The position numbers and the translations under genes are program-made. Below, one piece after another: positions 7,348-49,874 of a DNA stretch of 64,000 nucleotides. The notes below the pieces were generated by a model. The model was not told where the DNA came from, did no database searches, and worked only from the letters and a program-made list of their open reading frames with translations. Each line of letters begins with the position of its first letter. Position 1 is the first letter of the stretch. Source of the DNA: Henricia sp. BOLD:AAB3569 (lineage: Eukaryota; Echinodermata; Asteroidea; Spinulosida; Echinasteridae); the NCBI GenBank assembly GCA_037783545.1, contig JBBELK010000387.1, positions 124,001-188,000 of the forward strand, read 5' to 3'.

Positions 7348-10300
7348 CTGATTGGTTGATTGAGTAAAAGAAAAAGAAAATTAGACAGAAATTAAATCAA
7401 ATCAAATTTTGCACAAACCTGTAAAATTTAGTAATCTTTTAGGAGGTTGTCCAAAGTTTTAACAGGTCTACAGAGTGTAGGAAGGGGAGGGGTGGGGGAT
7501 GGTGGGGGATGGTGGGGGAGGGGGGGTCTAGGGCTGCATACAAATTTACGTGCACTGAAAAATGTTGACATTTCACAGTACTGACAAAACAATTTTTACC
7601 CGAAGTAATTATTAACACCGTATACTCAGTGCTTTCCCCGAGACACTATGAAAAATTTCATAGCGTGCTCGGGTGGGACTCGAACCCACGACCTCCTGCA
7701 AAGAGGCAGACGTCTTAACCACTCGACCACCAAGCTAGCCGGTGTCGAATGGCCGGTTCAAATCATTTCGCAATGGGGATTGCAATTAATCAGAAATTGA
7801 TTTAGTTTGCGTCGGAGAAACTAAATGTTAATTAATTGCGATCCCCGTTGTAAAATTATTCGAACCAGCCATTCAACACCGGCTAGCTCGGTGGTCGAGT
7901 GGTTAAGACGTCTGCCTTGTTTTCAGTAGGTCGTGGGTTCGAGTCTCACCCGAGCATGCTATGAAGTTTCTCATAGTGTCTTGGGAAAGCACCGAGTATA
8001 CAGTGTTAATAATTACGTCGGGTAAGGGCAAAACAAACCTTAACTAACATTCAGTTTCCCCGACGCAAACTAAATCAATTTCTGATCTTGATACTGTGAT
8101 CAGGCTACTTAATCCTTTTTGACGTTATTGATTTTATTTTAATGTACAGTATTTCTCCCAAGGGAGGCTGAAATAAATCGAAATTGAAATTTCTGAAAGT
8201 AATTGTATATAAAGGCAGAGTCAAAATATGAACTTACTGCAGCAGTTTGGTTCGCATCTTTTCAGCTTTCTTCTTGTGGATGAATTCCATCAAGACGCGC
8301 TTGTTCTTGAAGACATTACCCTTAGCCTTCATGTACAGACTGTGGTACCTGAAAGATGACAAATGGGAAAATTAGCATAACACTAAGCTTTAAGGCTCGT
8401 CAATACACCACGAACAAATTCGTGCCACGAATTTAACCGGGCCCCATACCTTGCCCGAGTAGGGCAGCTGCTCTTACAATCTAAGAGGCTCATTATTTAT
8501 GCGAGCTCGCCACAGTGTTTATGCGTTGCTAGGCTAATTGAATCACGCGCGCGCGCTGGGTTGTGGTGTTGTTGTATGTCGTTCGTACCAAAAAGTTCTC
8601 ATATACGGTCAATTCAACCATCTATATGACACCTTCTTGAAGCAAATGTGACCATATCTGTAATATAATGTGAATATGGCTGAAACTAAATGTCATGAAT
8701 TTATTGGCGTTTGGGCGCAGTACGGTAAAGTGACAAATCAAAGAATATCGTTACAACGTTAAAACCTTATTGCCATTCCCAAACTGACCCGCCACGACAC
8801 GAGACTTACATGGTCTCTTGAGATTAAGTGTCTTGCCCAGGGACACAAACACCTAGGCTGCTACTCACAGGTGGCGGTCAATCTTCTTGGCTTCCCGATA
8901 TTTCTTGAGGAGTCGTCTTAGCACTCGCATTCGTCTGATCCAGATCACCTTTTGCGGCATACGGGCATTGGCCGTACCCTTCCTTTTACCTACGGTGACG
9001 AAAGGTAAATAATGGTGTTTTGAATGTTCGTTACTTTGCCCAGTTGCGCACCCATACAACACAGAGAAAAATCGGGCTTGTAAGGAAAATCTGAGGGAGG
9101 ATACCACTGTGCCTTATAGCTCAGTTGGTAGAGCATCTGCCTGGTGTGTCAGACGTCTTGGGGGAAACCCGAGGGAGAATACCACTGTGCCTTATAGCTC
9201 AGCTGGTGGAGCGTCTGCCCGGTGTGTCAGAGGTCTTGGGGAAAACCCGAGGGAGAATACCACTGTGCCTTATAGCTCAGTTGGTAGAGCATCTGCCTGG
9301 TGTGTCAGAGGTCTTGGGGGAAACCCGAGGGAGAATACCACTGTGCCTTATAGCTCAGTTGGTAGAGCATCTGCCTGGTGTGTCAGAGGTCTTGGGGGAA
9401 ACCCGAGGGAGAATACCACTGTGCCTTATAGCTCAGCTGGTGGAGCGTCTGCCCGGTGTGTCAGAGGTCTTGGGGAAAACCCGAGGGAGAATACCACTGT
9501 GCCTTATAGCTCAGTTGGTAGAGCATCTGCCTGGTGTGTCAGAGGTCTTGGGGGAAACCCGAGGGAGAATACCACTGTGCCTTATAGCTCAGTTGGTAGA
9601 GCATCTGCCTGGTGTGTCAGAGGTCTTGGGGGAAACCCGAGGGAGTATACCACTGTGCCTTATAGCTCAGTTGGTAGAGCATCTGCCTGGTGTGTCAGAG
9701 GTCTTGGGGGGAACCTGAGGGAGAATACCACTGTGCCTTATAGCTCAGCTGGTGGAGCGTCTGCCCGGTGTGTCAGAGGTCTTGGGGAAAACCTGAGGGA
9801 GAATACCACTGTGCCTTATAGCTCAGTTGGTAGAGCATCTGCCTGGTGTGTCAGAGGTCTTGGGGAAAACCTGAGGGAGTATACCACTGTGCCTCACAGC
9901 TCAGCTGGTAGAGTATCTGCCCGGTGTGTCAGAGGTCTTGGGGAAACATATGAAAAAAGATTCTGCAAAAACATGTTTAGTGTTGAATTGTTGTGGAAAA
10001 TGTACTGCAAATATATTTTCATGTGGGAAATGTCATAAATTTGGTTGGCATAGGAACAGCTGTAATGCGACTAACTGTAACGTTACTAACCAAGATTTTC
10101 CAAAAGTTCTTAAAACTGGTGGGAGTACATACGGTATACAAAAACACACGCCAGTAAACAAGCTACAAAACAAATATGATGGTTTGTTTCAGTTGTGTCC
10201 CATTTGAGTAAACTTTTAGTTTCAAGACATGCATTCTTCCACGTCTTTTTTGTTGTTGTAAAGTTACTAACCGAGATTAAATATTTATTGCAGTTCACAA

Positions 10301-17092: not shown

Positions 17093-17831
17093 ATGTAGTC
17101 TTTTAGCAGTAGAGCTGAGAGAAGTTATGAACATGAACCCGCCATCGCAAAACAACAAAAAAGTCAAATGTGTCATTTTCTCACCGTGACACACTAATTC
17201 CCCCTAAAACTCACCTAAACCTTGCCAGGCATAACCACTACGCAGGTCCTTGAGGGAAATAACCAGCCACGATGATTATTTTGCAAACAATTCTAGCGAA
17301 ACAAACCGGTATGCTCACAGCCTACCGGTAGCCGTTTTTGTCTTGTTCAAAAACAACCAAGTGTCTAGTCTGTGTACAAAGGAATACCAATGCGCATTGG
17401 TTACCAGACTTGACCTTCACGTCTGGACGTGAAGGTCAAGTCTGGTAACCATTGCGCATTGGTATTCCTTTGTACACAGACTAGACACTTGGTTGTTTTT
17501 GAACAAGACAAAAACGGCTAGGCTGTGAGCATACCGGTTTGTTTCGCTAGAATTGTTTGCAAAATAATCATCGTGGCTGGTTATTTCCCTCAAGGACCTG
17601 CGTAGTGGTTATGCCTGGCAAGGTTTGGGTGAGTTTTAGGGGGAATTAGTGTGTCACGGTGAGAAAATGACACATTTGACTTTTTTGTTTGTTTTGCGAT
17701 GGCGGGTTCATGTTTATAACTTCTCTCAGCTCTACTGCTAAAAGACCACATCCCAATGAAAAATGATAAAAAAAGAGCTGAGATTATCTTAGCTATTTCC
17801 GGTCCACATCATCCCACAGGCACACCACAGG

Positions 17832-19404: not shown

Positions 19405-20130
19405 CATATTACTTTTAGAAGGCTAAAAGTGTTGTTTTTTACGTTTATATTGGGACGTTATCATTTTCTAAGAAACACTTTTAGCCCCTTAACATTCTAA
19501 CCCCATTCGCTATCGTGAATTTTGCTGCACGCCCTCAAGAGTCCAAATACCGGTGTGAAAATTCTTACCGTAAATTCCAAATCAGACATTTAAAAGCACA
19601 CCATGGAGGTCCTTGTAATCTCAAGACTTCTGTACCCTTGTCGTTCTTTGTCCATGATGACTCAAACATCAAAAAAGGATAAAAGGGAGCAAAATTTGGA
19701 GTAAAATCGAAAAAATTTAGCCAGCGTGGTACCACAGACTTCATGCTAGGCCGCGTCAAGAGAAAAGTAGTTCCGCCAACGCGGATGAATTTTGTTTACA
19801 CTATTTTAAGCCTAAACTGGTATATGAGCGAGAGTAGCGTAGCGCACATAGACAGGGGACCAGTTTAGGCTTAACATAGTGTAAACAAAATCCATCCGCG
19901 TTAGTGGGACTACTTTCCTTTTGACGCGATGTAGTAGCGAAGATCAAGGCCCCCGTATGTTCCAGATTTGTCGATTTTACTCCAAATTTTGCTCCCTTTT
20001 ATCCTTTCTTGATGTTTGAGTCATCATGGACAAAGAACGACAAGGGTACAGAAGTCTTGAGATTACAAGGACCTCCATGGTGTGCTTTTAAATGTCTGAT
20101 TTGGAATTTACGGTAAGAATTTACTTTCGT
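19405..20130. mobile_element. Foldback element, copy 2 of the TTGGGACGTTATC family
   Basis: Left arm 19560-19800 and right arm 19865-20130 are inverted copies (CAAGGGTACAGAAGTCTTGA). They meet at a tight hairpin with TTACACTATTTTAAGCC stems at 19795-19870. Confidence 0.7.
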
Positions 20131-20186: not shown

Positions 20187-21369
20187 TCCGGGAAAACTCC
20201 GAATAATATAACGTTGCCAAATAATGAAACCTTGAGTTGGCCGAGTCGTATAATGAGTCATTGCCGAATATAAATGAAACCTTAGAGTTTCACTTAGTAT
20301 AAGTATAAGGTAGACAGAATGATTCTGTCCCTACGGGATTTCCAGTAGGGACAGAAGGAACCCCTTTCATAAAGTGGATTGTTGTCATTTTGCCTCGAAA
20401 TTAGAATCACACCCAAAAATTTCCTCCTAGTTGTGTCCTGCAGTGGTTTGAGATATCCATGATTAGAAAATATTTGAAAAGAAATACTTACAACACCGTT
20501 TTTGAATCCAAAATGTTCTTCTACGTTCAAACTCAACAGTAGTTTTTGTCGTTGCAGTTTAAATAATTCTGGACGTGTGAGAGGGCGCTCTCCGCAGTGT
20601 AAATAAGGTACAGTTGCGCACATTGGGTGATGCGCTATGATGGGCAAGTACGAGGAGCTACACGAGCTAGCTATGTACATTGTAGGCCTACCGGTAGGAG
20701 GCGGCCCAAAACTCTGTTTTGACACTTTATTGAATTGGAGCATACATGATGCAGGCCACGAAAGTTCAGCTAGGCTTTGCTGTAATTGGATACTTTCGAG
20801 AAGTCACTCAAACCCAAAGTCAGCAACCAATGAGAGAATGGAATCAATAACAGTTCCAACACAACTACAATTGTCGGCTCCACAGTGTTTACCGCCCTAC
20901 TTTGAATTCAACTTGCAAAATGAAACCGAAAACCATCAGTAAAATCGCTTCCGCCCTCGAACGCAACTGTACATGTACATCTTCGGCTTGAAACCACAAA
21001 GGTTACCGACCGTTGGGCTCATCACAGCGGTATGCTGCCTGATTCTTTCAGAACAAAACTGCACTGCCTATTTATAAATTTTTGGCGGCGCAAAACAGCC
21101 GTTAGATCTTTGAAAAAGGGAGGATCGTTTTTTCACAAGTTGGTTTCGGATATCCGTTTAGCATTTTTCTAAACGGATAGTTACATTTCGGTCGTTTAAA
21201 CGTTTAAACGTTTACACTGTCTCAGCACTACCGGTACTCCCAAACAAAACCTAATCATGATGTTTTTATTAGTGTAATATCGCCTTATAAGCCTTATCAG
21301 CTTATGCACATTTTACACCGGAAGTTTCATTATTTGGCGACGTTTCCTTATTCGGAGTTTTCCCGGACT
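20187..21369. mobile_element. Foldback with GTCCGGGAAAACTCCGAATA ends, inserted in a MITE
   Basis: GTCCGGGAAAACTCCGAATAA at the left recurs inverted at 21343-21369. The left flank (AAATACCGAAATTACC...GGAATCA) and right flank (AGAATCAACAGATC...) look like the two halves of a CTTCCCACTTG-family MITE. Internal 20345-20535 is a diverged copy of the foldback at window position 1-830. Confidence 0.55.
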
Positions 21370-34200: not shown

Positions 34201-37200
34201 ATTATAAAAAAAAATAATGACAGGTCCTTTCATGTTATTTTCCCTTAAGGTGGCTTCTTGAGAATGAGGTTGACCCAGCCGGCGAGCTCCAGTGGTTAAT
34301 CGGCGTTTTGCAACAGGCCGAGGATAACCATGATCACGTTCACATTCTGGGCCATATTCCCACGGGAATCGTCGATTGTCTACCTCACTGGAGCGAGAAT
34401 TATAACAAAATCGTCACTAGGTGAGATAATTGTTAACGTGGTCTTTTAGTACAGCAGATAAGTGCAACAATCCTTCAAAACTGGATACAAGCACCAAATT
34501 TTGCATGTGCATCCCTCTTGAGCCACTTTTTTGGAAAAGCCCGTTAGCCATTTGAAAATTCAAAATGGCCGCCATTTTTTAAGATGGCCGCTATTTTTCA
34601 AGATGGCCGCCATATCCTTATGACATGACCTCATAAAATGCCAGAGAATTGTCCGATTTAAATGATCTTGGAATCCAATTATATGTTTTTGATCCTCTAG
34701 AAGCTGAATTTATAACTCTAAATTTACTTAGGGGCTTCTGTCTATCATTTTTGGTTGATTAACTTATGTTATTTAGACCCTGTTCGCACTAGAGAAATCG
34801 CTTCATCTGACGAAGATTCGACGATGATTTGACGAAGAGATTTATTGACGAAGATTATAATTTTCGCGATTTCTGAAACGCTTATTAGGTATTAATGATA
34901 TCCGCGTGACCCTGTGACGCAATCCTGAGAAACACAGATAAACATGGTCGGCAGTTCCATACGTTTACACGCAAAAAAACTTGGAAAACCGTCTCTGTTC
35001 AATGGTGTTTTTTAAAGAATTTCTCGTGCAAAAAGCCAGAGATGTGCCCAGTAGTTGTGTAGTTGTATGCTTCACCAGACACCATGACAAAAAATGAGCA
35101 GAAAGATTTTCGTTTTTATTACCAAGAGAGAGAAAAATAAGTAGCTCGTTCGAACTTGTACCGGCCGATGTGCATACCGTGTTGTGCCAATTTCAAACAC
35201 GTGGGAACTACGGCCCGTAGGAACTGTTCCCACTTCTGTACACAGACTGTTGTGTATGTCGTTCGTTCCATGACAAAACCACGGTCGCAATGCACAAGTA
35301 TTTACTTAAAAAGAGCTTCATTGTGAGCCACAATTTCACTGTTTTTTCACAAAAAGATAATAGAAAATTGTCATCATATTACAGAAAGTATTTTTCACGT
35401 TTGTAATTTGAATTACAAGGACAAAACAGGCCTGATGAACATACACTCCGTATATATTCCATTCAATACTACACAGGCCGTTTTGTGTTCTTCTCAGGAT
35501 GACGTCAAAACCTTGTTTGTAAACCAAGTGACCTCGAGCGTTCATAATTTTGGGTGAAGAGGGTCGGAACTGAATTGCATTTTAAACAAAAGACTGTCGC
35601 TTTTTTTGGCAGAAATCACATTGTTATCGAGTTGTAGAAACACACTTCCATGATAAACAGGAAAACTAAAAAAATGTGGATGGGGGTGAGGGGGAGATAC
35701 TAGCTGTTTAAAGTGCAATACCCATAATTTTCTTTTTTCTAGATACGAAAGCACAATCCGAGGACAGTTTTTCGGCCACACTCACAAAGATTCCTTTGAG
35801 ATTTTCTTCGAACCTCGAACCAAACGTCCGACAAACATGCTCTACAACGGGGGGAGTATAACCACGTACTCTGGAGTTAATCCGAACTACAGAATTTACA
35901 CAGTGGACGGCAACTATAAAAGCAGCACATGGGTAAGATTTTATTTTCCATGTTTTTTTCCCTACCAACGGGCAATTTTTTGTACCGAGCATAAAAAGAG
36001 CGCCCTCAATTCGTTAATTTCGGGAAGCAAACTTGTACAAGTCTAGACGTCTCATGAGACGAAAATTCAATTTGCCCCCAAACCATTTGCCCAAACCACT
36101 TCGTCCAAATACTACATCGCCCAAATGCTTCTTCGCCCCAAAACCACTTCGTGCACAGGCCGTGGTTCAGGGCGAAATGGTTCAGGGCGAAGTGGTTTTT
36201 GGGCGAAATGACTGCAAACCCTTTTTTGACCGTTTTCTCAAAAGTTAGACCAAGTACGGAGCTGGTTTTTGCTCAGGTTGGTTTTTATCATGAATATCTT
36301 CAATCACACAAGGGGATAAAACTATTTGTAACAGTTTACCAATCATGTATACTATCTTTAAAACTTTTGACATTGCACAATGATGGTGTTAATTTAAGAT
36401 GATCCCAAAAGTTGAAGCACTCGTAATCTGTAACGCATCCCATAGCCGCGCCCCTTCTGATTTTTTTAAAATTCTCAGCTCGCACCTCTGTTTATGAAAT
36501 TGGTCCCAGGTTACATCCCTTCTGAAGTAAGGAGCAAAGTGTGTTCAAAGGGCCCCTTATTTAGGATTTTTATCAATAAAATCTATGCTTTAAAACCACT
36601 TTACTCAGTTAAAGTCATAAAAATCCTATTTGGAGCTTGCTTTGGGGGTTAAAACAAAGGTTTTTAGTTTTTATGCTAATGCAAATATGCATATTCATGA
36701 CCAAGGTCACGACGTCACAAGAGGCAAACACAGGAAAATCACATTGAACTGTGCACAAAAGATTCCCCTTTTTCCTCAATTTTCCTGAAACTTTTGTAAT
36801 CCATGGCTGTTTAAGTTTGTTTTACATGTTGCCTGCTGTAAGCCATGACAAAACTATGGGGCGCCGTTCGTCAACTAATTATTTAGGCGAATTATAGCAT
36901 GTTTTTTCCATGGTTTATCTTAATTCTGTGTAAATAATGCATTTGTGTCAAAGGCCGTTTATGGTTTACAAACAACTCGATTCTTTACAAAACAGGAAAT
37001 ATACTTGTAGCTGTGCAAATTCATTATTTACAAATAATGAAAATTACCTCGGCGTTCCATACTTTATTAATGAAACCGACCAGTGTACATTTCAATGGTT
37101 TACAAACAAGAGAATTGTATCGTTCATAGACAATTCCATGGTTTATAAATAATGAATACTGCACATTGCTGCACGTTTTTCTGGTTTACAAATAATACAA

Positions 37201-40200
37201 AACTATCCAGTGCGCAATTACATGGTTTATAAACCAAGAAACTTGCACCGGGGTCTGATTTTCTATGGTTTATAAATAATGAAAATTGGTTAGTGGACGT
37301 ACAATTCCATGGTTTATAAACAATCTAAACTGCGCCGTTCTAATCAATTTTGTGGATTCTGTGGTTTGTAAACAATTACAAATAGTCAATAGGCGTGCAT
37401 TTTGATGGTTTGTAAATAATTGAAAGTGATCGTTGGCTCACAATTTCATGGTTTATAAATAATGAAAATGAACTAGTTAGTGTGTCGCAAAATTTCATGG
37501 TTTACAAACAGAAAAAAATAAAGCTTTATACACTTGTCTGTCGTTTGTAAAGGTTGACTATCGATAAAATAAGAAGTATTATGCACTCGGTACATCTCAA
37601 AATACGATCATTGACGAAAAATTGAAGGGTTTGTAAATAATGAAAATGGACTAGTTAGTGTGTCGCAAAATTTCATGGTTTACAAACAGAGAAAATTAAA
37701 GCTTTATACACGTTTCTGTCGTTTGTAAAGGTTGACTATCGATAAAAAGAGAAGTATTATGCACTCGGTACATCTCAAAATACGATCATTGACGAAAAAT
37801 TGAAGGGTTTGTAAACCATGAAAAACACGCTTCATAAACGTTTATTATAATCCAGTAACGTTGCGAGAGCAATGGGTGCGTTCAATTAGCTATCATCGAG
37901 TCATAGGGGTGCTCGTTCATAGTGTGAACAGTCCGGCAGACCATGGCAACAAAGGTATTTATGTGTACAGCTCATCGAACGCCACGGCACAGCCTTCAGC
38001 GCGCGCGCGGGAAATTCCAGGTTCATTAGCTGACTAAACCTAGCCGCGTATTGGGCCCGAAATCCAGCAGCGGTCTCAGCAGCGGTTTCAGCCGCGGTCG
38101 TAAAATCTCAAACGGATGTAGTAAAAGGTGATAAAATAATAATAATAATAACACATGCATTTGTAAAGCGCCATCTATCTATGTAAACATATTCTTATTT
38201 TTTATTACACGAGTTCTGAGACTCTGGCAAAGAAATTGTTAAAATTCTCAAAGAAATGTATTTCGTTTCACGGTGTTACCTAACTTAGTCATCTACCGGG
38301 CTGATTAAATTTTAAATGGTAATTTTAATTAATTAATTTTTAATTAATTTTAATTAATGAGGAGTGTCCATTTTTTACCCCAAAAGTGCCAAAAACTTAA
38401 AAGAAAACGTACACCACATAGTTTTAAAAATTAGCATTTGTATTACATACTAGTAATCCATTTAATCCGTTCATGGGGCAGATCAAATTTTGGAGGAAGC
38501 CAAATCGGTACACTAATTAGTGCTTAATTAAAGGGATAATAAGGAGTCTGGTTTCCACTAAAAAAGTGCCGAAAACTTAATACTGCTGACAAAATGGTCC
38601 CTTTAAAATAAAATGTACACCACATAGTTTGAAAAATTTGCATTTTTATTACATAATCCGTTTGAAACTATGTAGTGTACATTTTCTTTTAAAGGGACCA
38701 TTTTGTCAGCAGTATTCAGTTTTCGGCACTTTTGGGGTGGAAAATGGAGACTTCTCATTAGCCCTTTAATTAAGCACTAATTTGTGGACCGATTTGGCTT
38801 CCTCCAAAATTTGATCTGCCCCATGGACGGAACAAACAGATTATGTAATAAAAATGCTAATTTTTGAAACTATGTGGTGTACATTTTCTTTTAAAGGGAC
38901 CATTTTGTCGGCAGTATTAAGTTTTCGGCACTTTTGGGGTGGAAAATGGAGACTCCTCATTAATTAAAATTAATTAAAAATTAATAAATTAAAATTACTA
39001 TTTAAAATTTAATCAGCCCGGTAGATGACTGAGTTAGGTAACACCGTGAAAAGAAATACATTTCTATGAGAATTTTAACAATTTCATTGCCAGAGTCTTC
39101 GTTCAATGAATAGTGTGTTACTGACTCCGGGAAATGTTAAATGTAAAGTTTCATTAGGCGATTGTGCTTTTCAGACCGCTGCCCCTAAACTATGGTCCAA
39201 ACTTCCAGGTCACATCAGAAATCTTAGGAGTCTTGAGAAGTTTAAAACTGAAGTTAAAACATATCTTTTTAAACTTGCCTTTGATTTATGATTTTTAATC
39301 TTAATTAAGTAACGATGATGTGATTAGTTTCGTTTTTAAAATGTGCAGCGCACATGAACATATTTATATGGAATGCGCGCTATATAAATGTAAATACTAT
39401 GAATTGTAGGATAGGGCGACAAATCGTGTTTAAAAAAGCTATATTAGGGCGACCTGCTCAATAGGGCGACATTTTGGTGTCGCCCTAATATTTTTGAGTT
39501 TAAAATTAATTTTTTTAGGTCAAAAACCATTTTTTTTAGGTCGAGAACCATTTTTATGGGGACTGGAGTCGTTTCTCTTCGGTCTGCGACCATCTCCGGA
39601 AGCTTTGGGTAAAAAAATAAGGTGTCATTTTGAGTGACTCTTGCCGAAATTTCGGTGGTCTCCGGCGAGAGTCTTGCCGAAGTGTCGCCCTATTGCGGCA
39701 TCCAGCGTTGTTTAAATTATTATTATTATTATTTAACTCGTGTAATAAAAAATAAGATTTTATCACCTTTTACTACATCCGTTTGAGATTTTAAGACCGC
39801 GGCTGGATTTTGGGCCCAATACGCGGCTAGGTTTAGTCGGGTAATGAACCTGGAATTTCCCGCGCGCGCGCTGAAGGCTGTGCCGTGGCGTTCGATGAGC
39901 TGTACACATAAATACCTTTGTTGCCATGGTCTGCCGGACTGTTCACACTATGAACGAGCACCCTATGACTCGATGATAGCTAATTGAACGCACCCATTGC
40001 TCTCGCAACGTTACTGGATTATAATAAACGTTTATGAAGCGTGTTTTTCATGGTTTACAAACCCTTCAATTTTTCGTCAATGATCGTATTTTGAGATGTA
40101 CCGAGTGCATAATACTTCTTATTTTATCGATAGTCAACCTTTACAAACGACAGAAACGTGTATAAAGCTTTAATTTTCTCTGTTTGTAAACCATGAAATT

Positions 40201-42534
40201 TTGCGACACACTAACTAGTCCATTTTCATTATTTACAAACCCTTCAATTTTTCGTCAATGATCGTATTTTGAGATGTACCGAGTGCATAATACTTCTTAT
40301 TTTATCGATAGTCAACCTTTACAAACGACAGACAAGTGTATAAAGCTTAATTTTTTTCTGTTTGTAAACCATGAAATTTTGCGACACACTAACTAGTTCA
40401 TTTTCATTATTTATAAACCATGAAATTGTGAGCCAACGATCACTTTCAATTATTTACAAACCATCAAAGTGCACGCCTATTGACTATTTGTAATTGTTTA
40501 CAAACCACAGAATCCACAAAATTGATTAGAACGGCGCAGTTTAGATTGTTTATAAACCATGGAATTGTACGTCCACTAACCAATTTTCATTATTTATAAA
40601 CCATAGAAAATCAGACCCCGGTGCAAGTTTCTTGGTTTATAAACCATGTAATTGCGCACTGGATAGTTTTGTATTATTTGTAAACCAGAAAAACGTGCAG
40701 CAATGTGCAGTATTCATTATTTATAAACCATGGAATTGTCTATGAACGATACAATTCTCTTGTTTGTAAACCATTGAAATGTACACTGGTCGGTTTCATT
40801 AATAAAGTATGGAACGCCGAGGTAATTTTCATTATTTGTAAATAATGAATTTGCACAGCTACAAGTATATTTCCTGTTTTGTAAAGAATCGAGTTGTTTG
40901 TAAACCATAAACGGCCTTTGACACAAATGCATTATTTACACAGAATTAAGATAAACCATGGAAAAAACATGCTATAATTCGCCTAAATAATTAGTTGACG
41001 AACGGCGCCCCATACAAAACTGGGGGTAGAAACTGCAGCAATTTGCCACAAGTCCAACTTGAAGTCTTATTTTTTTTTTTATAACTTTTGCCTTTTGTCT
41101 TCCTTTTGTGATGCACTCAAAACAGCGCCCTCTGTCTGTGATTTATTGCAATGAAATCTTCAAAGTTGAAAAATGCCACTTTTTATTGATTTTACATCCA
41201 AACGAACAATAGTATGTCTTGCTGAACAAGTAATCCGTCATTATGAAGCAAAGCTTAGGCACAAAGTTGTTTAGCATGTCACAGGCCCTTTAAGTGCCTA
41301 ACTCAAGGGCACTGGTACCACGGCCAGGTATCGAACCCGCAACCCAAAGTTTTCACCTGAGTATTGTGAGTCAACGACCCAAACCACTCAGCCACAGCAC
41401 CCCACATTAAAGCTATTTTTATTTTTGCCAACAGGCCGTTTTGGATCATGCAACTTACATAATGAACGTTACCGACGCAAACCTCAGAGACGACCCCAAA
41501 TGGACACTAGAGTATACTGCTAAGGTACGTCACACACTTTCTAAACTGTCCACAATGCATAGTTCCGACGTGTCAATCAAGCCGAACCCCAACCAATCAC
41601 AACAGAGCTAGCAGACGGCGCCCACATAGGTCAAAGTGATGCAATCATCACACAAAATTATCACACGATTTTCTGCCCATACAGTTTGTATGATGTATGT
41701 GCCAGTGACCGGGTAAATTTTGGTTTCAATGTCAGGCGATTCGCTGTTCAAAGTTAGGAAAGCGCATTTTTATAAATATGTCATCCCTGCATTACTAGCC
41801 CTTCGCTCAGTGTGTGCTACGGTAACTGTCGACCCTAAAACATAAATACCTTTGAGTTTTCTCCAATAAATCTGTGCTTTCCATGCCGAGTCCCGTAGCT
41901 TTGTACGTAGTGTCGCCATTTTTTGCGATGGCTTGTGAGCACATAGCAACAATATCTAAGGGGCGGGGTTAACTGGGCAATCACGGAACTATGCATTGGT
42001 AGCAGTTTGTGTTAGTTTGTTGCTTGTATTAGACTGATGATCGATCGGCCATCGAATATTCAAATAGCATTTTATCAAATCGAATATTCGGTATGTGTTT
42101 TTTCCAATCCAAACCAAACATATCTTTCAACTAGGAAGAAGTAAAAAACCTTGTTCCTTTGCCGAAACGGCCACTTTGATGTCGTGGCCTTTTTCCAAAT
42201 CTCGACTTGGGCTCAGGCTCAGGCTCCATGTAAACCACATGGAGACGGAGCCTGAGCCCAAGTTGAGATTTAGAAAAAGACCCTTATTTGCGTCCAACCA
42301 CGAGTCCAGTGTACAACATTCTGAGATATCAGGGAATTTCCACGCTGCAAAGCGACGCAACAATACCCTGAGGAAATCCTCGCAAATCTGTGGAGCGAGC
42401 CGGCTGTTGTCTTGAGCCAACTCACGCCCGAGTCATTTTGATGTATTTTAATCAATTCGGTCATGTTATGCCGAAAAGAAATGATTTCTATACTTTCCAG
42501 AAATTGTATTGGGTTCCGTTCCTTATGACTGTCC

Positions 42535-42566
<32 letters not shown>

Positions 42567-44749
42567 GCATCATTTATATAGCGCCTCTTCCAAGGGTAGC
42601 AAAGCGCTTCGAAAACCTCACTGACAGTTTATAATGCCACAGAACTGTGCAAATTTAGCTAGAAAATAAGTAGGTTTTGAGTGAAGATTTAAACAACTGT
42701 ATGGAGTTAGATTGTCTAATTGTTTGTGGAATGCAGTTCCAGATTCCCATTCCTACCAAACTTTCAAACGACGATCTTAATTTACTCCGCAGTTTTTCAA
42801 ATTAATAACAGGGATGCATGCTGACGAATGTAATGGAACGGATTCCCCAGTATCCTTTAAATAGCAGCCAATAACAGCCAGCATTACCGAGTACATGTAT
42901 CACATGCATGCACGGTGTTTACAATCAGCGCGCATTACATTTGAATGCCTGCAATCATGCTGCAATGCACTGCCAAGCGTCCTGATTGGTCCAGCAGAGG
43001 CGACAAGATTTCTGTCGCTTGTTCCACCGCGAAATGGGGCCTGTTTCAACAGGGCCACTGTACGCAGGAGTTAGAGAGTGCGTTAAAGGGGCACTGTTGC
43101 AAGAGGATGGTGTACAAGGGCCGACGATAATTTCTGCAAAAAACTCTTGAGAGACTGCTATGCAAGTTCCAACATTTTTTTTTTTTGAGGCGGCAAATTC
43201 GGCAATAAAAAGGCTGCTGTAACTTCCTGTGAGCTGAGCTGTGAGTTCGGATGTGCCAAAATAAATTAATTTAATGGCAAATGTTTTTGTCAAAATCTTG
43301 GGGAAAAAATTTACGCATTGAATATCGAATATTCGATCGAAAATATAACCGATTATTCGAATAGTAAGTTATTCGAAAATGCACATGCCTAAATGTGCAG
43401 CACATTACAGACCATTCCACGTTAGTGGACACCAACGATATATAGCTTGGCAAAAATGATTGTTTTCGTTTTGAACCAATGAAGACTTTGTGTGATTTCA
43501 GCCTGTGCATGTATAAATATATTTAAACGTGCTTCAAATTTTACTTTATGTTGTCAGAATGCTTACGGCTTAAATGCACTACAAGCAGTCGATTGGAGTG
43601 CACTTGTGGGCAACATGGCAGCTAAAAACAGCACGCTTTTTGACAAGTTTTATCGGTAAGTTACAACACAACTTATCTCGAATTAAAGTGTGTGTTAATG
43701 CTTGCTTTTCACTAGCAAGGCCTTAGTTACCAGACTTTTTGGACTGGCCTTAGGGCAGACAGTAGCAGGATATTAGGCTTGATGGCCTGGGCCAGGCTAG
43801 GCTTTTCATTGGCAGGCCTTACCAGACCTTTTGGACTGGCCTTGGGGCAGACAGTAACAAGATATCAGGCCTGATGGCCTGGGCTTTTCACTGGCAGGGC
43901 CTTACCATACCTTTTGGACTGGCCTTAGGGCAGACAGTAGCAAGATATCAGGCCTGATGGCCTGGGCTTTTCACTGGCAGGGCCTTAGCAGACCTTTTGG
44001 ACTGGCCTTAGGGCAGACAGTAGCAAGATATCAGGGCTGATGGCCTGGGCCAGGCTGGGCTTTTCACTGGCAGGGCCTTACCAGACCTTTTGGACTGGTC
44101 TTGGGGCAGACAGTAGCAAAATATCAGGCCTGATGGCCTGGGCCAGGCTGGGCTTTTCACTGGCAGGGCCTTACCAGACCTTTTGGAATGGTCTTGGGGC
44201 AGACAGTAGCAAGATATCAGGCCATATGGCCTGGGTCAGGCTGGGCTTTTCACTGGCAGCGCCTTAATTACCAGTCCTTTTAGACTGGCCTTAGGGCAGA
44301 CAGGAGCAATATATCAGGCCTGATGGCCTGAGCCAGGCTGGGCTTTTCACTGGCAGGGCCTTATCAGACCTTTTGGACTGGCCTTAGGGCAGACAGTTGC
44401 AAGATATCAGGCCTGATGGTCTGGGCTTTTCACTGGCAGGGGCCTTACCAGACCGATTGGACTGGCCTTGGGGCAGACAGTAGCAAGATATCAGGCCTGA
44501 TTGCCTGGGCTTTTCACTGACAGGGCCTTACCCGACCTTTTGGACTGGCCACTTAAATCGATACGATGTCATTTTGGTGAAAACATTTATTATTTATAAC
44601 AAACATTTTATTTGTTCTTTTTTCCCACCAGGTATTTCTTCAAAAGTCAACCTCAACAGGCCTCCAATGCCAAATGCGATGCCAAATGCAAAGCAGGATT
44701 CATTTGCGATCTTAGAACGGCCAACTCTGGAAGCCATGAATTCTGCTAA
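21977..44749 (+). CDS. SMPD1: Acid sphingomyelinase (sphingomyelin phosphodiesterase 1-like), twelve coding exons
   Basis: Lysosomal or secreted zinc phosphodiesterase that hydrolyses sphingomyelin to ceramide and phosphocholine. Exons are 21977-22270, 24549-24713, 25186-25309, 26126-26229, 26715-26884, 29469-29588, 31038-31118, 34250-34420, 35743-35932, 41435-41524, 43558-43655 and 44632-44749. They join in frame to 1725 nt, 574 residues. Residues 1-20 are a signal peptide. Residues 48-124 hold the six saposin B cysteines (48, 51, 79, 90, 116, 124). The dinuclear metal site is complete: D166 and H168 (SDLHWD), D238 (GDLPAHD), N278 (GNHE), H388 (LGHIP), H422 and H424 (GHTHKD). H242 and H279 sit where the human catalytic histidines are. 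Spacing is close to human ASM (629-631 residues). The protein ends in Cys574. A CAG acceptor 9 nt before the ATG suggests an upstream 5'UTR exon that I could not place. The enzyme family is certain; orthology to SMPD1 rather than an invertebrate paralogue is inferred. Confidence 0.96.
22300..23267. mobile_element. hAT-like element with GAGTCCGAGTC subterminal repeats
   Basis: Ends CAGTGTTGTAGTCAAGTC and GAGTACTACAACACTG. The flanking octamers CCCTGACC and CATTGACC match at six of eight positions, as for an aged 8-bp hAT duplication. Both subterminal zones (22315-22435 and 23110-23245) are clusters of GAGTCCGAGTCAYGAGTC. It sits in SMPD1 intron 1. Confidence 0.7.
23270..24548. other. Rest of SMPD1 intron 1
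   Basis: Contains two local direct duplications: GGAAGAATTTCTTTAATGAC at about 24060 and 24111, and GGTTTGTGACCTAACC at about 24179 and 24200. CCCTAACTCC-like sequence recurs at 23825 and 24239. No exon. Confidence 0.4.
24549..24713 (+). CDS. SMPD1: SMPD1 exon 2: end of saposin domain and proline linker (residues 99-153)
   Basis: The acceptor is AATATTAG and the donor GTATGT. Cysteines C116 and C124 close the saposin fold. The linker up to residue 153 is rich in Pro and Lys ([14 protein letters not shown]), as in other acid sphingomyelinases. Confidence 0.94.
24752..25113. mobile_element. TTAA|AGGAGCGTG MITE, copy 2
   Basis: TTAAAGGAGCGTGACCAG at the left and CACACTCCTTTAA at the right, flanked by TTAA on both sides. 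In SMPD1 intron 2. Confidence 0.7.
25186..25309 (+). CDS. SMPD1: SMPD1 exon 3: metallophosphatase motif I (residues 154-194)
   Basis: The exon encodes [12 protein letters not shown], with metal ligands D166 and H168, then a cysteine-bearing loop (CGEPLCCR). The acceptor is TTTAG and the donor G|GTACT. Confidence 0.96.
25427..25667. mobile_element. GGGGCCAATTTCATGGC foldback MITE, complete copy
   Basis: GGGGCCAATTTCATGGCGCTG at the left and CAGCGCCATGAAATTGGTCCC at the right, with AAGCACAAAACTTTGCTTAGC inside. In SMPD1 intron 3. A terminal fragment is at about 36495-36510. Confidence 0.75.
26126..26229 (+). CDS. SMPD1: SMPD1 exon 4 (residues 195-229)
   Basis: The exon encodes [14 protein letters not shown] and [14 protein letters not shown], conserved between motifs I and II of the family. 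The acceptor is TTTTCAG and the donor GTATGC. A 210-bp sequence that recurs inverted after exon 5 starts about 60 bp downstream. Confidence 0.95.
26290..26498. repeat. Left arm of inverted repeat around SMPD1 exon 5
   Basis: About 210 bp (ACAGGGTTTTTAGAAAGGC, AACAACTGAAACTTATTTC, GCCCCCTTTACTGTGG) that returns inverted at 26903-27113. It lies in intron 4, 216 bp upstream of exon 5. Confidence 0.85.
26715..26884 (+). CDS. SMPD1: SMPD1 exon 5: motifs II and III (residues 230-285)
   Basis: The exon carries FTGDLPAHD (D238, H242) and SVGNHE (N278, H279), so four catalytic or metal-binding residues sit on one exon. It also has two N-X-T sequons. At 170 nt it is not a multiple of three, so skipping it would shift the frame. 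Inverted repeats flank it at 26290-26498 and 26903-27113. Confidence 0.97.
26903..27158. repeat. Right arm of inverted repeat around SMPD1 exon 5, plus a direct copy of its outer end
   Basis: 26903-27113 is the reverse complement of the left arm and starts only about 20 bp after the exon 5 donor. 27117-27158 repeats, in direct orientation, the 40 bases at the outer end of the left arm (TAACACAAGTGTCYGTCCCG). Confidence 0.85.
27705..28052. mobile_element. TTAA|AGGAGCGTG MITE, copy 3 (inverted)
   Basis: Ends TCTGGACACGCTCCTTTAA. The interior has TTATGTAACCAGATAAATTA and GACGATATCCTTGAAAAT. In SMPD1 intron 5. Confidence 0.65.
28060..28900. other. SMPD1 intron 5, AT-rich, no gene
   Basis: A short direct duplication of GTGAGGGACGGAAATCAAG at 28068-28105. 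Otherwise low-complexity AT-rich DNA. Confidence 0.3.
28903..29436 (-). mobile_element. Tc1-like transposon remnant with TA duplication
   Basis: Ends CTGAAACGCA and TGCGTTTCAG with TA on each side (28901-28902 and 29437-29438). The minus strand preserves a transposase C-terminus reading [20 protein letters not shown], a Tc1-type ending; upstream it is degraded and largely deleted. It lies 30 bp upstream of SMPD1 exon 6. Confidence 0.75.
29469..29588 (+). CDS. SMPD1: SMPD1 exon 6 (residues 286-325)
   Basis: The exon encodes [19 protein letters not shown] and [10 protein letters not shown], with one sequon. The acceptor CCACACAG lies only about 30 bp after the right end of a Tc1-like remnant. 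The donor is GTAAGG. Confidence 0.95.
29880..30510. repeat. TTCGCCC-rich dispersed element, copy 1
   Basis: A block of TTCGCCCCAAAACCA and TTCRTSCA variants that folds back onto GGGCGAAGTGGTTTTGGGGC. It is preceded by CTCATGAGAC and followed by GACTGCAAACCCTTTTTT and ACGGAGCTGATTTTTGCTCA. Copies at 36040-36350 and 62035-62690. Confidence 0.7.
30510..31030. other. SMPD1 intron 6 remainder, no gene
   Basis: AT-rich; no repeat partner or exon seen. Confidence 0.25.
31038..31118 (+). CDS. SMPD1: SMPD1 exon 7 (residues 326-352)
   Basis: The exon encodes [20 protein letters not shown], the family's conserved strand that ends in a short Asn/Cys loop. The acceptor is CCCTTAG and the donor GTAAGC. 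Confidence 0.95.
31570..31920. repeat. Probable transposon fragment in SMPD1 intron 7
   Basis: CpG-rich GCGCGCGATGCCAAATTG and GCACGTGCTAAGTACACGATG, ending GTGACATAGCCCCTTTAA. That end is similar to the CATGTCACAGGCCCTTTAA end at 41275. No intact ORF. Confidence 0.35.
32150..32360 (+). pseudogene. Tc1/mariner transposase C-terminal fragment, frameshifted
   Basis: LIEHAWDEL corresponds to the NPIEHLWDEL block that contains the last catalytic acidic residue. After a frame change [20 protein letters not shown] follows. The other frame ends AARGGHTHY and stop, the usual Tc1 ending. The rest of the transposase is missing. Confidence 0.75.
32467..33278. mobile_element. TTAA|AGGGACACACTGGC element, copy 1
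   Basis: Ends TTAAAGGGACACACTGGC and GCCGGTGTGTCCCTTTAA. It includes AAAGGTGGCGTTCGATATGG and CTCGCACTTCGCGCTGG. A second copy in the same orientation is at 54655-55214. In SMPD1 intron 7. Confidence 0.7.
33277..33602. mobile_element. TTAA|AGGAGCGTG MITE, copy 4, right end lost
   Basis: Same interior as copy 3 (TTATGGAACCGGATAAATTA). The right end breaks off where the next element starts at 33605. Confidence 0.6.
33605..34198. mobile_element. Element of the GATTGGCTGCTATTTAAAGC family (direct copy)
   Basis: Matches 42300-43125 in inverted orientation and 10738-11030 in part. It continues through GGTAGGAATGGGACAGTCAT and ACAGCCGGCTCACTCCACAG. It ends in TACGCTCCTTTAA 50 bp before SMPD1 exon 8. 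Confidence 0.65.
34250..34420 (+). CDS. SMPD1: SMPD1 exon 8: motif IV (residues 353-409)
   Basis: The exon encodes [13 protein letters not shown] and [10 protein letters not shown], with metal ligand H388, then [13 protein letters not shown]. The acceptor is CCCTTAAG and the donor GTGAGA. Confidence 0.96.
34421..35742. other. SMPD1 intron 8
   Basis: Holds three AAGATGGCCGCYAT units at 34563-34612 and an imperfect repeat of TGACGAAGATTMGACGA at 34808-34858. No exon of another gene is seen. Confidence 0.3.
35743..35932 (+). CDS. SMPD1: SMPD1 exon 9: motif V (residues 410-473)
   Basis: The exon encodes [15 protein letters not shown], with metal ligands H422 and H424, then [17 protein letters not shown], the strands that close the catalytic domain. 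The acceptor is TTTTCTAG and the donor GTAAGA. Confidence 0.96.
36040..36350. repeat. TTCGCCC-rich dispersed element, copy 2
   Basis: Begins with the palindromic GTCTCATGAGACG. Same body as copy 1 (GTGCACAGGCCGTGGTTCAG; GACTGCAAACCCTTTTTT). In SMPD1 intron 9. Confidence 0.7.
36540..36800 (+). repeat. Dispersed repeat, copy 2
   Basis: Partner of 14035-14317 (AAACACAGGAAAATCACATT). Confidence 0.6.
38215..39096. mobile_element. Second inverted repeat nested in the palindrome centre
   Basis: GACTCTGGCAAAGAAATTGT at the left returns inverted at 39070-39096. The inner arms share GGGCTGATTAAATTTTAAAT and TTTTCGGCACTTTTGGGGTG. Tandem and inverted copies of AAACTATGTRGTGTACATTT occur at 38655 and 38865. 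Confidence 0.7.
39097..39410 (+). pseudogene. 5'-truncated non-LTR retrotransposon tail (reverse transcriptase C-terminus)
   Basis: [20 protein letters not shown] and [18 protein letters not shown] are the standard last residues of CR1/L2-group LINE ORF2 proteins. They are followed by GCGCGCTATATAAATG. Only about 60 residues remain. A (TTA)n tail at 39715-39735 may belong to it. Confidence 0.75.
41323..41402 (-). repeat. tRNA-like SINE head
   Basis: The minus strand reads GTGGCTGAGTGGTTTGGGTC (A-box region) and GCGGGTTCGATACCTGG (B box), about 80 bp in all. It may carry a variable arm, as in Ser-type tRNAs. In SMPD1 intron 9, 33 bp before exon 10. Confidence 0.55.
41435..41524 (+). CDS. SMPD1: SMPD1 exon 10 (residues 474-503)
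   Basis: The exon encodes [16 protein letters not shown] and WTLEYTAK, the C-terminal domain that follows the phosphatase fold. The acceptor is CAACAG and the donor GTACGT. It is separated from exon 9 by 5.5 kb containing the 4.16-kb palindrome. Confidence 0.95.
41549..41996. mobile_element. AATGCATAGTTCCG element, copy 1
   Basis: Ends AATGCATAGTTCCG and CGGAACTATGCATT. The body matches 53914-54352 in inverted orientation (GTAACTGTCGACCCTAAAAC). In SMPD1 intron 10. Confidence 0.7.
42195..42276. repeat. Hairpin, TTGGGCTCAGGCTC stem
   Basis: AAATCTCGACTTGGGCTCAG and its near-complement flank ACATGGAG. The stem is about 38 bp. Confidence 0.6.
42300..43125. mobile_element. Element of the GATTGGCTGCTATTTAAAGC family (inverted copy), split by a LINE tail
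   Basis: Reverse complement of 33605-34198. The sequence GACTGTCCCATTCCTACC, continuous in the other copy, is opened here by 42537-42745. In SMPD1 intron 10. Confidence 0.65.
42537..42745 (-). pseudogene. LINE tail inserted in the 42300-43125 element
   Basis: The minus strand encodes [20 protein letters not shown] and LKTYLF before a stop. GGCGCTATATAAATGATGC and a (TTA)n tail follow. TCCCATT is present on both sides as a target duplication. Confidence 0.75.
43558..43655 (+). CDS. SMPD1: SMPD1 exon 11 (residues 504-535)
   Basis: The exon encodes [13 protein letters not shown] and STLFDKFYR, a conserved helical region of acid sphingomyelinases. The acceptor is TTGTCAG and the donor GTAAGT. 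The following intron is almost wholly minisatellite. Confidence 0.94.
43703..44550 (+). repeat. Minisatellite array A (GGCAGACAGTAGCAAGATATC)
   Basis: About ten units of 75-95 bp: CAGGGCCTTACCAGACCTTT, GGACTGGCCTTAGGGCAGAC, AGTAGCAAGATATCAGGCC, TGATGGCCTGGGC. It fills most of SMPD1 intron 11. The same unit occurs inverted at 48608-49874. Confidence 0.88.
44632..44749 (+). CDS. SMPD1: SMPD1 exon 12 and stop (residues 536-574)
   Basis: The exon encodes YFFKSQPQ followed by a Cys-rich tail (C551, C555, C561, C574) and TAA at 44747-44749. The last residue is a cysteine, recalling the C-terminal regulatory cysteine of human ASM. No AATAAA is obvious in the next 200 bases. Confidence 0.94.
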
Positions 44750-48458: not shown

Positions 48459-48607
48459 ATAGTCGTAAGTCCTTATAAATTGAAAAGGTTCTTTTTTTGA
48501 GTACTAATCAGAGGCTGATATGTAATAATTTTGAAAAACATAACTTAATAGTCATAATCAGGACACTGACGAGATTGTCTTTTTGGGGTACGAGGCAAGT
48601 TCAAGGG

Positions 48608-49874
48608 CCTAATATATTGCTACTGTCTGCCCTAAGGCCAGTCCAAAAAGTCTGGTAAGGCTCTGCCAGTGAAAGGTTCAGGCCATGATCAGGCCTGATA
48701 TCTTGCTACTGTCTGCCATAAGGCCAGTCCAAAAGGTCTGATAAGGCCCTGCCAGTGAAAAGCCCAGGCCATCAGGCCTGATATCTTGCTACTGTCTGCC
48801 CTAAGGCCAGTTCAAAAGATCTGGTAAGGCCCTGCCAGTGAAAAGCCCAGGCCATCAGACCTGATAGCTTGCTACTGTCTGCCCTAAGGCCAGTCCAAAA
48901 GGTCTGGTAAGGCCCACCCAGTGACAAGCCCAGTCTGGCCCAGGCCATCGGGCCTGATATCTTACTAGTGTCCGCCCTAAGGCTAGTCCAAAAGGTCTGG
49001 TATAGTCCTGCCAGTGAAGAGCCTAGCCTGGCCCAGGCCATCAGGCCTGATACCTTGCTACTGTATGTCCAAAATATCTGCTAAGGCCCAGCAAGATAAA
49101 AGCCCAGCCTGACATGACCCAGGCCATCAGGCCTGATATCCTGCTACTGTCCAAAAGGTATGGTAAGGCCCTGCAAGTGAAAAGCCCAACCTGACATGAC
49201 CCAGGCCATCAGGCCTGATTTCCTGCTACTGTCCGCCCTATGGCCAGTCCAAAAGGTCTGGCAAGGCCCTGCCAGTGAAAAGCCCAGCCTAGCCCAGGCC
49301 ATCAGGCCTGATATCTTGCTACTGTCTGCCCTAAGGCCAGTCCAAAAGGTCTGGTAAGGCCCTGCCAGTGAAAAGCCCAGCGTGGCCCAGGCCATCAGGC
49401 CTGATATCTTGCTACTGTCTGTCCTAAGGCTAGTCCAAAAGGTCTGGTAAGGTCCTGCCAGTGAAGAGCCTAGCCCAGGCCATCAGACCTGATACCTTGC
49501 TACTGTCTGTCCAAAAGATCTGGTAAGGCCCTGCAAGTAGAAAGCCCAGCCTGACATGACCCATATCATCAGGCCTGATATCCTGCTACTGTCTGCCCTA
49601 AAGTCAATCCAAAAGGTCTGGTAATTACAAGGCCCTGCCAGTGAAAAGCCAACCTGGCCCAGGCCATCGGGCCTGATATCTTGCTACTGTCTGCCCTAAG
49701 GCCAATCCAAAAGGTCTGGTAAGGCCCTGCCAGTAAAAAGCCCAGCCTGGCCTAGGCCATCAGTCCTGATATCTTGCTACTGTCTGCCCTAAGGCCAGCC
49801 CAAAAGGTCTTGTAAGGCCCTGCCAGTGAAAAGCCCAGCCTGGCTTAGGCCAATAGGTCTGATATCTTGCTACA
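48608..49874 (-). repeat. Minisatellite array B, inverted relative to array A
   Basis: About fourteen units: GATATCTTGCTACTGTCTGC, CCTAAGGCCAGTCCAAAAGG, TCTGGTAAGGCCCTGCCAGT, GAAAAGCCCAGCCTGGC. This is the reverse complement of the array at 43703-44550, 4.06 kb away. Confidence 0.88.

What the first reader, a model, noticed from the sequence alone, without database searches (positions are those of the whole stretch)
36856..41013. Giant 4.16-kb palindrome made of repeated GGTTTAYAAAYAATG words inside an SMPD1 intron
The element has exact 8-bp duplications (ACAAAACT) and almost identical arms of about 1.3 kb. Each arm carries some 17 iterations of a GGTTTAYAAA(Y/C)AATGAAA word spaced 35-90 bp. 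Such regular subterminal words look like clustered binding sites for a transposase or host factor. A pre-mRNA crossing it would form a very long duplex between exons 9 and 10. I know of no named family matching the terminus ATGGGGCGCCGTTCGTCAAC.
Basis: partly seen in the sequence, partly recalled or inferred. Interest (0 to 1): 0.8.

Follow-up and report, generated by a model that had tools for sequence, protein, structure and literature searches.

The report
Foldback jumping gene, probably IS3EU-like
A 4.16-kb mirror-image stretch in an intron of what is probably an echinoderm genome is one copy of a young, apparently non-coding "foldback" transposon family whose ends and 6-base target duplication match those reported for the little-studied IS3EU transposons.

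Summary
The palindrome is real. Arms of about 1.28 kb are near-identical, and each carries a ~1-kb array of 18 TTTRYAAA words, mostly about 43 bp apart. It lies between two adjacent coding blocks of an acid-sphingomyelinase-like gene.

It is not an assembly artefact. The host genome (740 Mb; echinoderm or hemichordate by mitochondrial code) holds 320 exact copies of the 21-bp terminus, 0 in the reversed control. Of the 100 places listed, 82 form 41 convergent pairs.

T precedes ATGGGG and A follows CCCCAT in 36 of 36 end pairs. A 6-bp duplication is exact in 30 of 36, an 8-bp one in 3 of 36. So the element is TATGGGG...CCCCATA with duplication CAAAAC. This matches IS3EU: TA..TA ends and usually 6 bp (PMC10045372), TAYGG..CCRTA in fungal IS3EU families (PMC12730594).

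Best reading: a young, non-autonomous IS3EU-like foldback family. Its arms probably act as a multi-site platform for a transposase supplied elsewhere, as found for the unrelated Galileo (PMC3688188). No transposase gene with these ends was found, so the assignment rests on ends and duplication length.

The parts
36849..36854 (+). left copy of the 6-bp target-site duplication, CAAAAC
   Evidence: the adjoining A (36848) and element T (36855) make it look like 8 bp
41015..41020 (+). right copy of the 6-bp target-site duplication, CAAAAC
36855..41014 (.). whole element, 4160 bp, TATGGGGCGCCGTTCGTCAAC ... GTTGACGAACGGCGCCCCATA
   Evidence: terminus found 157+163 times genome-wide, 0 in control
36855..38137 (+). 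left arm (about 1.28 kb): 21-bp end, spacer, word array, inner flank
39757..41014 (-). right arm, near-identical inverted copy of the left arm (a further 23 bp, 39735-39757, pairs with 38193-38215)
36965..37824 (+). word array of the left arm: 18 TTTRYAAA cores, imperfect ~20-bp palindromes, spacing mostly 41-44 bp
40045..40904 (-). word array of the right arm (18 cores)
37450..37824 (+). 2.1 tandem copies of a 178-bp unit inside the left array; unit count varies 1-3 between family members
40045..40419 (-). 2.1 tandem copies of the 178-bp unit inside the right array
38219..39098 (.). middle domain: second, more diverged palindrome (83.9% between halves), shared by other copies in several length classes
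39099..39735 (+). 637-bp segment missing from at least 14 of 33 copies; its first part (ORF 39079-39291) reads like the C-terminal tail of a LINE reverse transcriptase (recognised by eye, not searched)
35705..35935 (+). acid sphingomyelinase-like coding block upstream of the intron (extent of the match)
41432..41539 (+). next acid sphingomyelinase-like coding block downstream (extent of the 5i81_A match; weak)

Best explanation
This is one copy of a young, non-autonomous cut-and-paste DNA transposon family of foldback architecture, in a genome that is echinoderm (or hemichordate) by its mitochondrial code. By its ends and target duplication it belongs with the IS3EU superfamily. Shown here: multicopy, TATGGGG..CCCCATA ends in every end pair examined, 6-bp target duplications in most, near-identity among the copies compared, no long ORF in them, ~1-kb word arrays in both arms. 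Inferred: a DDD/E (integrase-type) transposase made elsewhere cuts at the 21-bp ends; dimers of it, or of a host factor, sit on the ~20-bp palindromic words every ~43 bp (about four helical turns) and help pair the two ends. The arrays grow and shrink in 178-bp units, probably by unequal exchange. The sphingomyelinase intron is simply where this copy landed.
For: Terminus: 157 forward + 163 reverse exact 21-mers, 0/0 in the reversed-pattern control; 82 of the 100 listed ends form 41 convergent pairs under 20 kb, against 1 divergent neighbour pair. T/A outside the 20-mer in 36 of 36 pairs and exact 6-bp duplications in 30 of 36. IS3EU in the passages read: complete families always have TA..TA termini and usually 6-bp TSDs (PMC10045372); a set of fungal IS3EU families makes 6-bp TSDs, has TIRs over 30 bp and ends with TAYGG..CCRTA (PMC12730594); Styx, linked to IS3EU by its transposase, was searched with a 36-bp TIR and 6-bp TSD (PMC10853768). 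Symmetric target preference around 30 duplications: C at -2 in 16/30 and G at +2 in 16/30 (p 9e-5 each), G/C at -3 in 23/30 and at +3 in 24/30 (positions picked after looking at 20). Scored arm matches 98-100% identical; between-copy left-arm identity median 99.39%. Longest ATG ORF in 33 copies: 122 aa. Across 13 word units the 24-bp core is 70% pairwise identical, linkers 36%, background 28%. 178-bp unit count 1-3, unequal between arms in 7 of 33 copies. Precedent for array function: the Galileo transposase THAP domain binds several sites in its long arms (PMC3688188, abstract and passages).
Against: No copy with these ends that codes a transposase was found. The copies were judged by ORF length only, so an intron-split gene could be missed, and 320 ends could not all be listed. 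The TAYGG..CCRTA form is documented, in what I read, for fungal IS3EU families only. The rva_4 integrase gene nearest to a listed end (10.8 kb, C122) was not shown to lie in a copy, and that end belongs to an ordinary word-array arm. Around one other rva_4 gene no TAYG..CRTA pair with a near-exact 6-bp duplication was found within 4.6 kb. That rva_4 integrases are the IS3EU transposase is my guess, from no call. The core-versus-linker contrast is partly built in, because units were picked by an 8-bp key. Shared variants avoid the cores only weakly (0 core, 6 other, p 0.04), and a diverged copy shows no bias (5 core, 8 other). Three single-pair loci (L014, L027, L029) lack a 6-bp duplication. 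Copies were fetched as the best matches to this window's arm, not at random.
Confidence: 0.7

Rival explanations
1. A foldback element of another superfamily (MULE, P/Galileo-like or hAT), moved by that superfamily's transposase, that only resembles IS3EU at its ends.
For: [quoted passage not shown] No IS3EU transposase is tied to these ends. A hAT lineage with 6-bp duplications exists (hAT6, PMC12730594), and PMC10045372 gives 4-10 bp for IS256 and MuDR together, so TSD length alone excludes neither.
Against: The 6-bp duplication in 30 of 36 pairs does not fit the 7-8 bp of Galileo nor the usual 8 bp of hAT. T..A is invariant in 36 of 36 pairs and the TAYGG..CCRTA form is met.
Confidence: 0.18
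2. The word arrays are not transposase sites but landing sites for a host protein (for example a homeodomain, forkhead or chromatin factor; suggestion recalled, no motif search made), or are inert relics of an old 43-bp tandem repeat; the arms are carried along because the 21-bp ends alone suffice.
For: Linkers between words are more alike than shuffled ones (0 of 300 shuffles reach the observed score), so an ancestral ~43-bp tandem repeat is likely. The diverged copy shows no core-sparing. The first core lies about 110 bp from the end, so the terminus itself lacks the word.
Against: Cores are better kept than linkers across units (70% against 36%; partly built in by the choice of units). Arrays of 13-21 words are present in both arms of all 33 copies compared, although the middles differ.
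Confidence: 0.35
3. Assembly artefact or a local inverted duplication of the intron.
For: Foldback artefacts occur in long reads (PMC12870357, abstract start in the listing).
Against: Flanks differ on the two sides and sit between adjacent coding blocks; arms differ at several sites and in their inserts; 30 loci, this one included, have their own exact 6-bp duplications.
Confidence: 0.01

Closest known systems
IS3EU (IS3EU/GingerRoot) superfamily
   Same: TA..TA ends and 6-bp duplications (PMC10045372); TAYGG..CCRTA ends and TIR over 30 bp as in fungal IS3EU families (PMC12730594; passages of both read). Non-autonomous families are common there (45 families in Repbase, 17 autonomous, as PMC10045372 states)
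   Different: Arms of ~1.28 kb with phased word arrays; no transposase seen. No foldback IS3EU among the 20 papers listed (of 77) in the search
Galileo (P superfamily, Drosophila)
   Same: Foldback form, TIRs of 0.5-1.2 kb with internal tandem repeats, multiple transposase sites in the arms, mostly non-autonomous copies (PMC3688188, PMC4168063, passages)
   Different: 7- or 8-bp duplications (consensus GTATTAC in D. willistoni); its transposase is of the P type
Tetris / DAIBAM (Drosophila virilis)
   Same: Foldback, tandem repeats inside the arms, variable non-coding middle, autonomous partner unknown (PMC4079207, passages)
   Different: ~220-bp repeats, 8-9 bp duplications
TU elements of the sea urchin Strongylocentrotus purpuratus (Liebermann 1983; Hoffman-Liebermann 1985)
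   Same: Echinoderm foldback transposons with repeated short units in the outer arm, an inner arm domain and variable middles (recalled; the 1985 paper is not held under the DOI I recalled)
   Different: Recalled as making 8-bp duplications; TU sequence not available here, so kinship is untested

Membership tests
IS3EU superfamily | 6-bp target-site duplication (usual, PMC10045372) | tested here: met
   30 of 36 end pairs exact; 30 of 33 loci with a single pair
IS3EU superfamily | TA..TA termini (PMC10045372); TAYGG..CCRTA in fungal families (PMC12730594) | tested here: met
   TATGGGG..CCCCATA in 36 of 36 pairs
IS3EU superfamily | terminal inverted repeats over 30 bp (fungal families, PMC12730594) | tested here: met
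   ~1.28-kb arms
IS3EU superfamily | DDD/E IS3EU transposase encoded by the element or by a partner with the same ends | tested here: inconclusive
   No ATG ORF over 122 aa in 33 copies, no HMM scan of them. 53 rva_4 integrase matches in the genome, none tied to these ends.
Foldback-type elements (structural class) | very long inverted arms with internal repeats and a variable middle | tested here: met
P superfamily / Galileo | 7-8 bp duplication | tested here: not met
   6 bp; 7 or 8 bp for Galileo from PMC4168063
hAT superfamily | usually 8-bp duplication (6 bp only in the hAT6 lineage, PMC12730594) | tested here: inconclusive
   8 bp exact in 3 of 36 pairs; hAT6 cannot be excluded on length alone
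Mutator-like (MULE) foldbacks | 8-10 bp duplication (recalled; PMC10045372 gives 4-10 bp for IS256 and MuDR together) | tested here: inconclusive
   6 bp is outside the recalled range but inside the quoted one
Sea urchin TU elements | sequence identity of the arm repeats and ends | not testable with these tools
   no TU sequence held; paper not held

The most novel reading that the evidence does not exclude
IS3EU-type integrase transposases can drive foldback transposons whose kilobase arms are phased arrays of palindromic, dimer-sized words. This would be a multi-site end complex new for this DDD/E branch, and the classic unclassified sea urchin TU foldbacks would be explained as members of the same group.
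Probability: 0.25. Interest if true: 0.62.

Novelty: new variant of a known kind. Interest (0 to 1): 0.42.

Why it matters
In the papers I saw, foldback transposons are tied mainly to Mutator-like and P-type transposases (PMC4079207, PMC4168063). An IS3EU-like foldback family would show the form arising in the integrase-like branch too. A young family with many near-identical copies gives a clean system to test why kilobase arms full of repeated words persist. It also offers a testable lead on the sea urchin TU foldbacks. For genome readers it shows how a chance match can turn a 6-bp duplication into an apparent 8-bp one and mislead classification.

Tried and rejected
Rejected: an 8-bp duplication, once copies were compared. 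Rejected: assembly artefact. No support found for a middle that disperses without arms: of the 40 best-scored middle matches (of 204 candidates) I placed 32 by coordinates in arm-bearing copies; the other 8 lie on contigs whose ends were not listed, and 164 candidates were not scored.

Led nowhere: Pfam scan of 10 long ORFs of the window (hits in 1 of 10, both implausible bacterial families). Terminus in viral contigs (0). L046, 5.5 kb of the interior of a 7.9-kb pair: LINE-like ORFs by eye, nothing that I recognised as a transposase. The C122 rva_4 gene. L049 around another rva_4 gene. Pattern TATGGGGCGCCGTTCH: 0 matches. Pattern TATGGGGCGCCGV for diverged ends did not complete. I compared the 53 rva_4 places with the listed ends and fetched copies by eye and found none inside a copy. 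The 14 control genomes that rang 0 are, as far as named, prokaryotes, so that control says little.

What the counts hold: duplication counts use all 36 end pairs; L023 supplies three because its left end is multiple, and L022, L028, L030 gave no pair. Arm comparisons use 33 copies, without L022, L023, L028, L030. One search shows only blast hits above 85% identity. One search uses the first 640 bases of 66 arms plus L048. The within-copy arm identity ranges from 88.28 to 100%; the lowest values are copies with unequal 178-bp unit counts.
Full report
Observation. The inverted arms are real: 36855-37908 and 39961-41014 are complementary over 1054 nt, with four mismatches by my reading of the alignment. 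The similarity runs on to about 1.28 kb at 97.4% including gaps (8 mismatches, 2 gap openings). The element has 37 TTTRYAAA cores (8.9/kb against 0.46 and 0.35/kb in the flanks). In one arm there are 18 cores; 10 of 17 spacings are 41-44 bp and two are 86 bp. Tandem 178-bp units inside the array mean that not all these spacings are independent. Many words are imperfect palindromes of about 20 bp (4 to 10 of the 12 nearest positions pair).

Gene context. A coding block at 35705-35935 matches residues 385-464, and one at 41432-41539 matches residues 463-499, of the solved sphingomyelin phosphodiesterase 5i81_A (the second hit is weak, E 0.0065). The GNHE and GHIP motif exons lie upstream on the same strand. 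The element therefore sits in the intron between adjacent coding blocks.

A family. The own genome (740.7 Mb, 2104 contigs) gave 41 matches to the left arm, from the 40 best-scored of 1034 candidates, 98-100% identical. The exact 21-bp terminus occurs 157 + 163 times and never in the reversed control, so there may be about 160 copies with intact ends (inference). Of the 100 places listed, 82 form 41 convergent pairs under 20 kb, median 3992 bp.

The duplication is 6 bp. I fetched 36 stretches, chosen as the best arm matches, and paired exact termini. With the window there are 36 end pairs from 34 loci (L023 gives three; L022, L028 and L030 give none). The base before ATGGGG is T and the base after CCCCAT is A in all 36. 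The next six bases repeat exactly in 30 of 36, while an 8-bp repeat directly abutting ATGGGG occurs in 3 of 36. The exceptions are L014, the three pairs of L023, and L027 and L029, whose flanks are reverse complements and so look like one site on two contigs. In this window an A before and a T after make CAAAAC look like ACAAAACT. Around 30 duplications the target shows a symmetric preference: C at -2 and G at +2 in 16 of 30 each, G/C at -3 and +3 in 23 and 24 of 30 (positions picked after looking).

Which superfamily. [quoted passage not shown] The end features that I could test are met. The 33 copies have no ATG ORF over 122 aa; I ran no HMM scan on them, so a gene split by introns could escape. 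The genome has 53 matches to the rva_4 integrase core, but I could not tie one to these ends. The listed end nearest an rva_4 gene (C122) is an ordinary, somewhat diverged word-array arm, and one other rva_4 locus showed no flanking signature within 4.6 kb. That rva_4 proteins are the IS3EU transposase is a guess, not a result.

Age and anatomy. Left and right arms of one copy are about as alike (median 99.48%, range 88.28-100) as left arms of different copies (median 99.39%), and only 6 of 33 copies have their own other arm as closest relative. Near-identity of the arms thus reflects a recent burst rather than copy-specific correction. The 178-bp unit varies from 1 to 3 copies and differs between arms in 7 of 33. 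The middle is a second palindrome, 83.9% between halves, present in several length classes. Of the 40 best-scored middle matches (of 204 candidates), 32 fall in arm-bearing copies I already knew and the other 8 could not be checked. A 637-bp segment (39099-39735) is missing from at least 14 of 33 copies, which join element positions 2243 and 2880 (my reading).

Function of the words. Across 13 units the 24-bp core is 70% pairwise identical, linkers 36%, background 28%. Linkers are still more alike than shuffled ones (0 of 300 shuffles reach the observed score), so an ancestral tandem repeat is likely. Because units were chosen by an 8-bp key, this is support, not proof, of selection. Variants shared by at least 3 arms fall outside cores at 6 of 6 sites (p 0.04), singletons are evenly spread (24 core, 33 other; 41% core expected), and the diverged L048 shows no bias (5 core, 8 other). 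The Galileo precedent, several transposase sites in long foldback arms, is experimental (PMC3688188). I take the arrays as an end-pairing platform with moderate confidence; a host-factor or relic role remains open.

Hairpin RNA. The whole element is predicted to fold at -3023 kcal/mol with 1253 arm-to-arm pairs; one mononucleotide shuffle gave -952. No consequence was tested.

Host. Mitochondrial COX1 occurs as three copies 16,221 bp apart on C955 and once on C2104. In a 236-base piece AAA stands at both conserved Asn positions of INFITTIINMR and TGA is Trp, the echinoderm (or hemichordate) code. That a 16.2-kb mitochondrial genome suggests a sea star or sea cucumber is recalled.

Literature. 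Eight papers were read in passages. A search for IS3EU with foldback, palindrom- or long TIR (77 papers, 20 listed) showed no foldback IS3EU; the one listed paper holding both IS3EU and foldback, on the oyster satellitome, uses them separately. The 57 unlisted papers were not seen. The sea urchin TU paper I asked for is not held. What I say of TU is recalled, apart from the mention of sea urchin foldbacks (Lieberman et al. 1983) in PMC4079207 and of sea urchin TU in PMC7986276.

Noticed in passing
1-732: Another palindrome: arms 1-348 and 385-732, 100% complementary, 36-nt loop, possibly running off the window; parts recur near 20363-20552.
   Followed up: no
17149-17694 and 19559-20122: Two shorter near-perfect inverted repeats (97% and 99%), MITE-like; ends printed but no target duplication analysis done.
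   Followed up: no
9093-9947: 11 tandem copies of a 78-bp unit that reads like a tRNA-derived SINE fragment (nature judged by eye).
   Followed up: no
43704-44550 and 48606-49873: Two arrays of the same satellite-like sequence (period about 83-93 bp) in opposite orientation.
   Followed up: no
L023:435-634: Three copies of the left terminus within 200 bp: it looks like a copy inserted 157 bp into another, with a 41-bp stub between.
   Followed up: partly
L030:3295-3296: The right end of one copy abuts position ~308 of another copy's arm, apparently a nested self-insertion.
   Followed up: partly
G000:C92:682475-716756: Three reverse-strand termini about 17 kb apart without listed forward partners; possible tandem duplication.
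   Followed up: no
G000:C955: The 48.6-kb contig holds COX1 three times 16,221 bp apart, so it looks like a concatemer of the mitochondrial genome.
   Followed up: no
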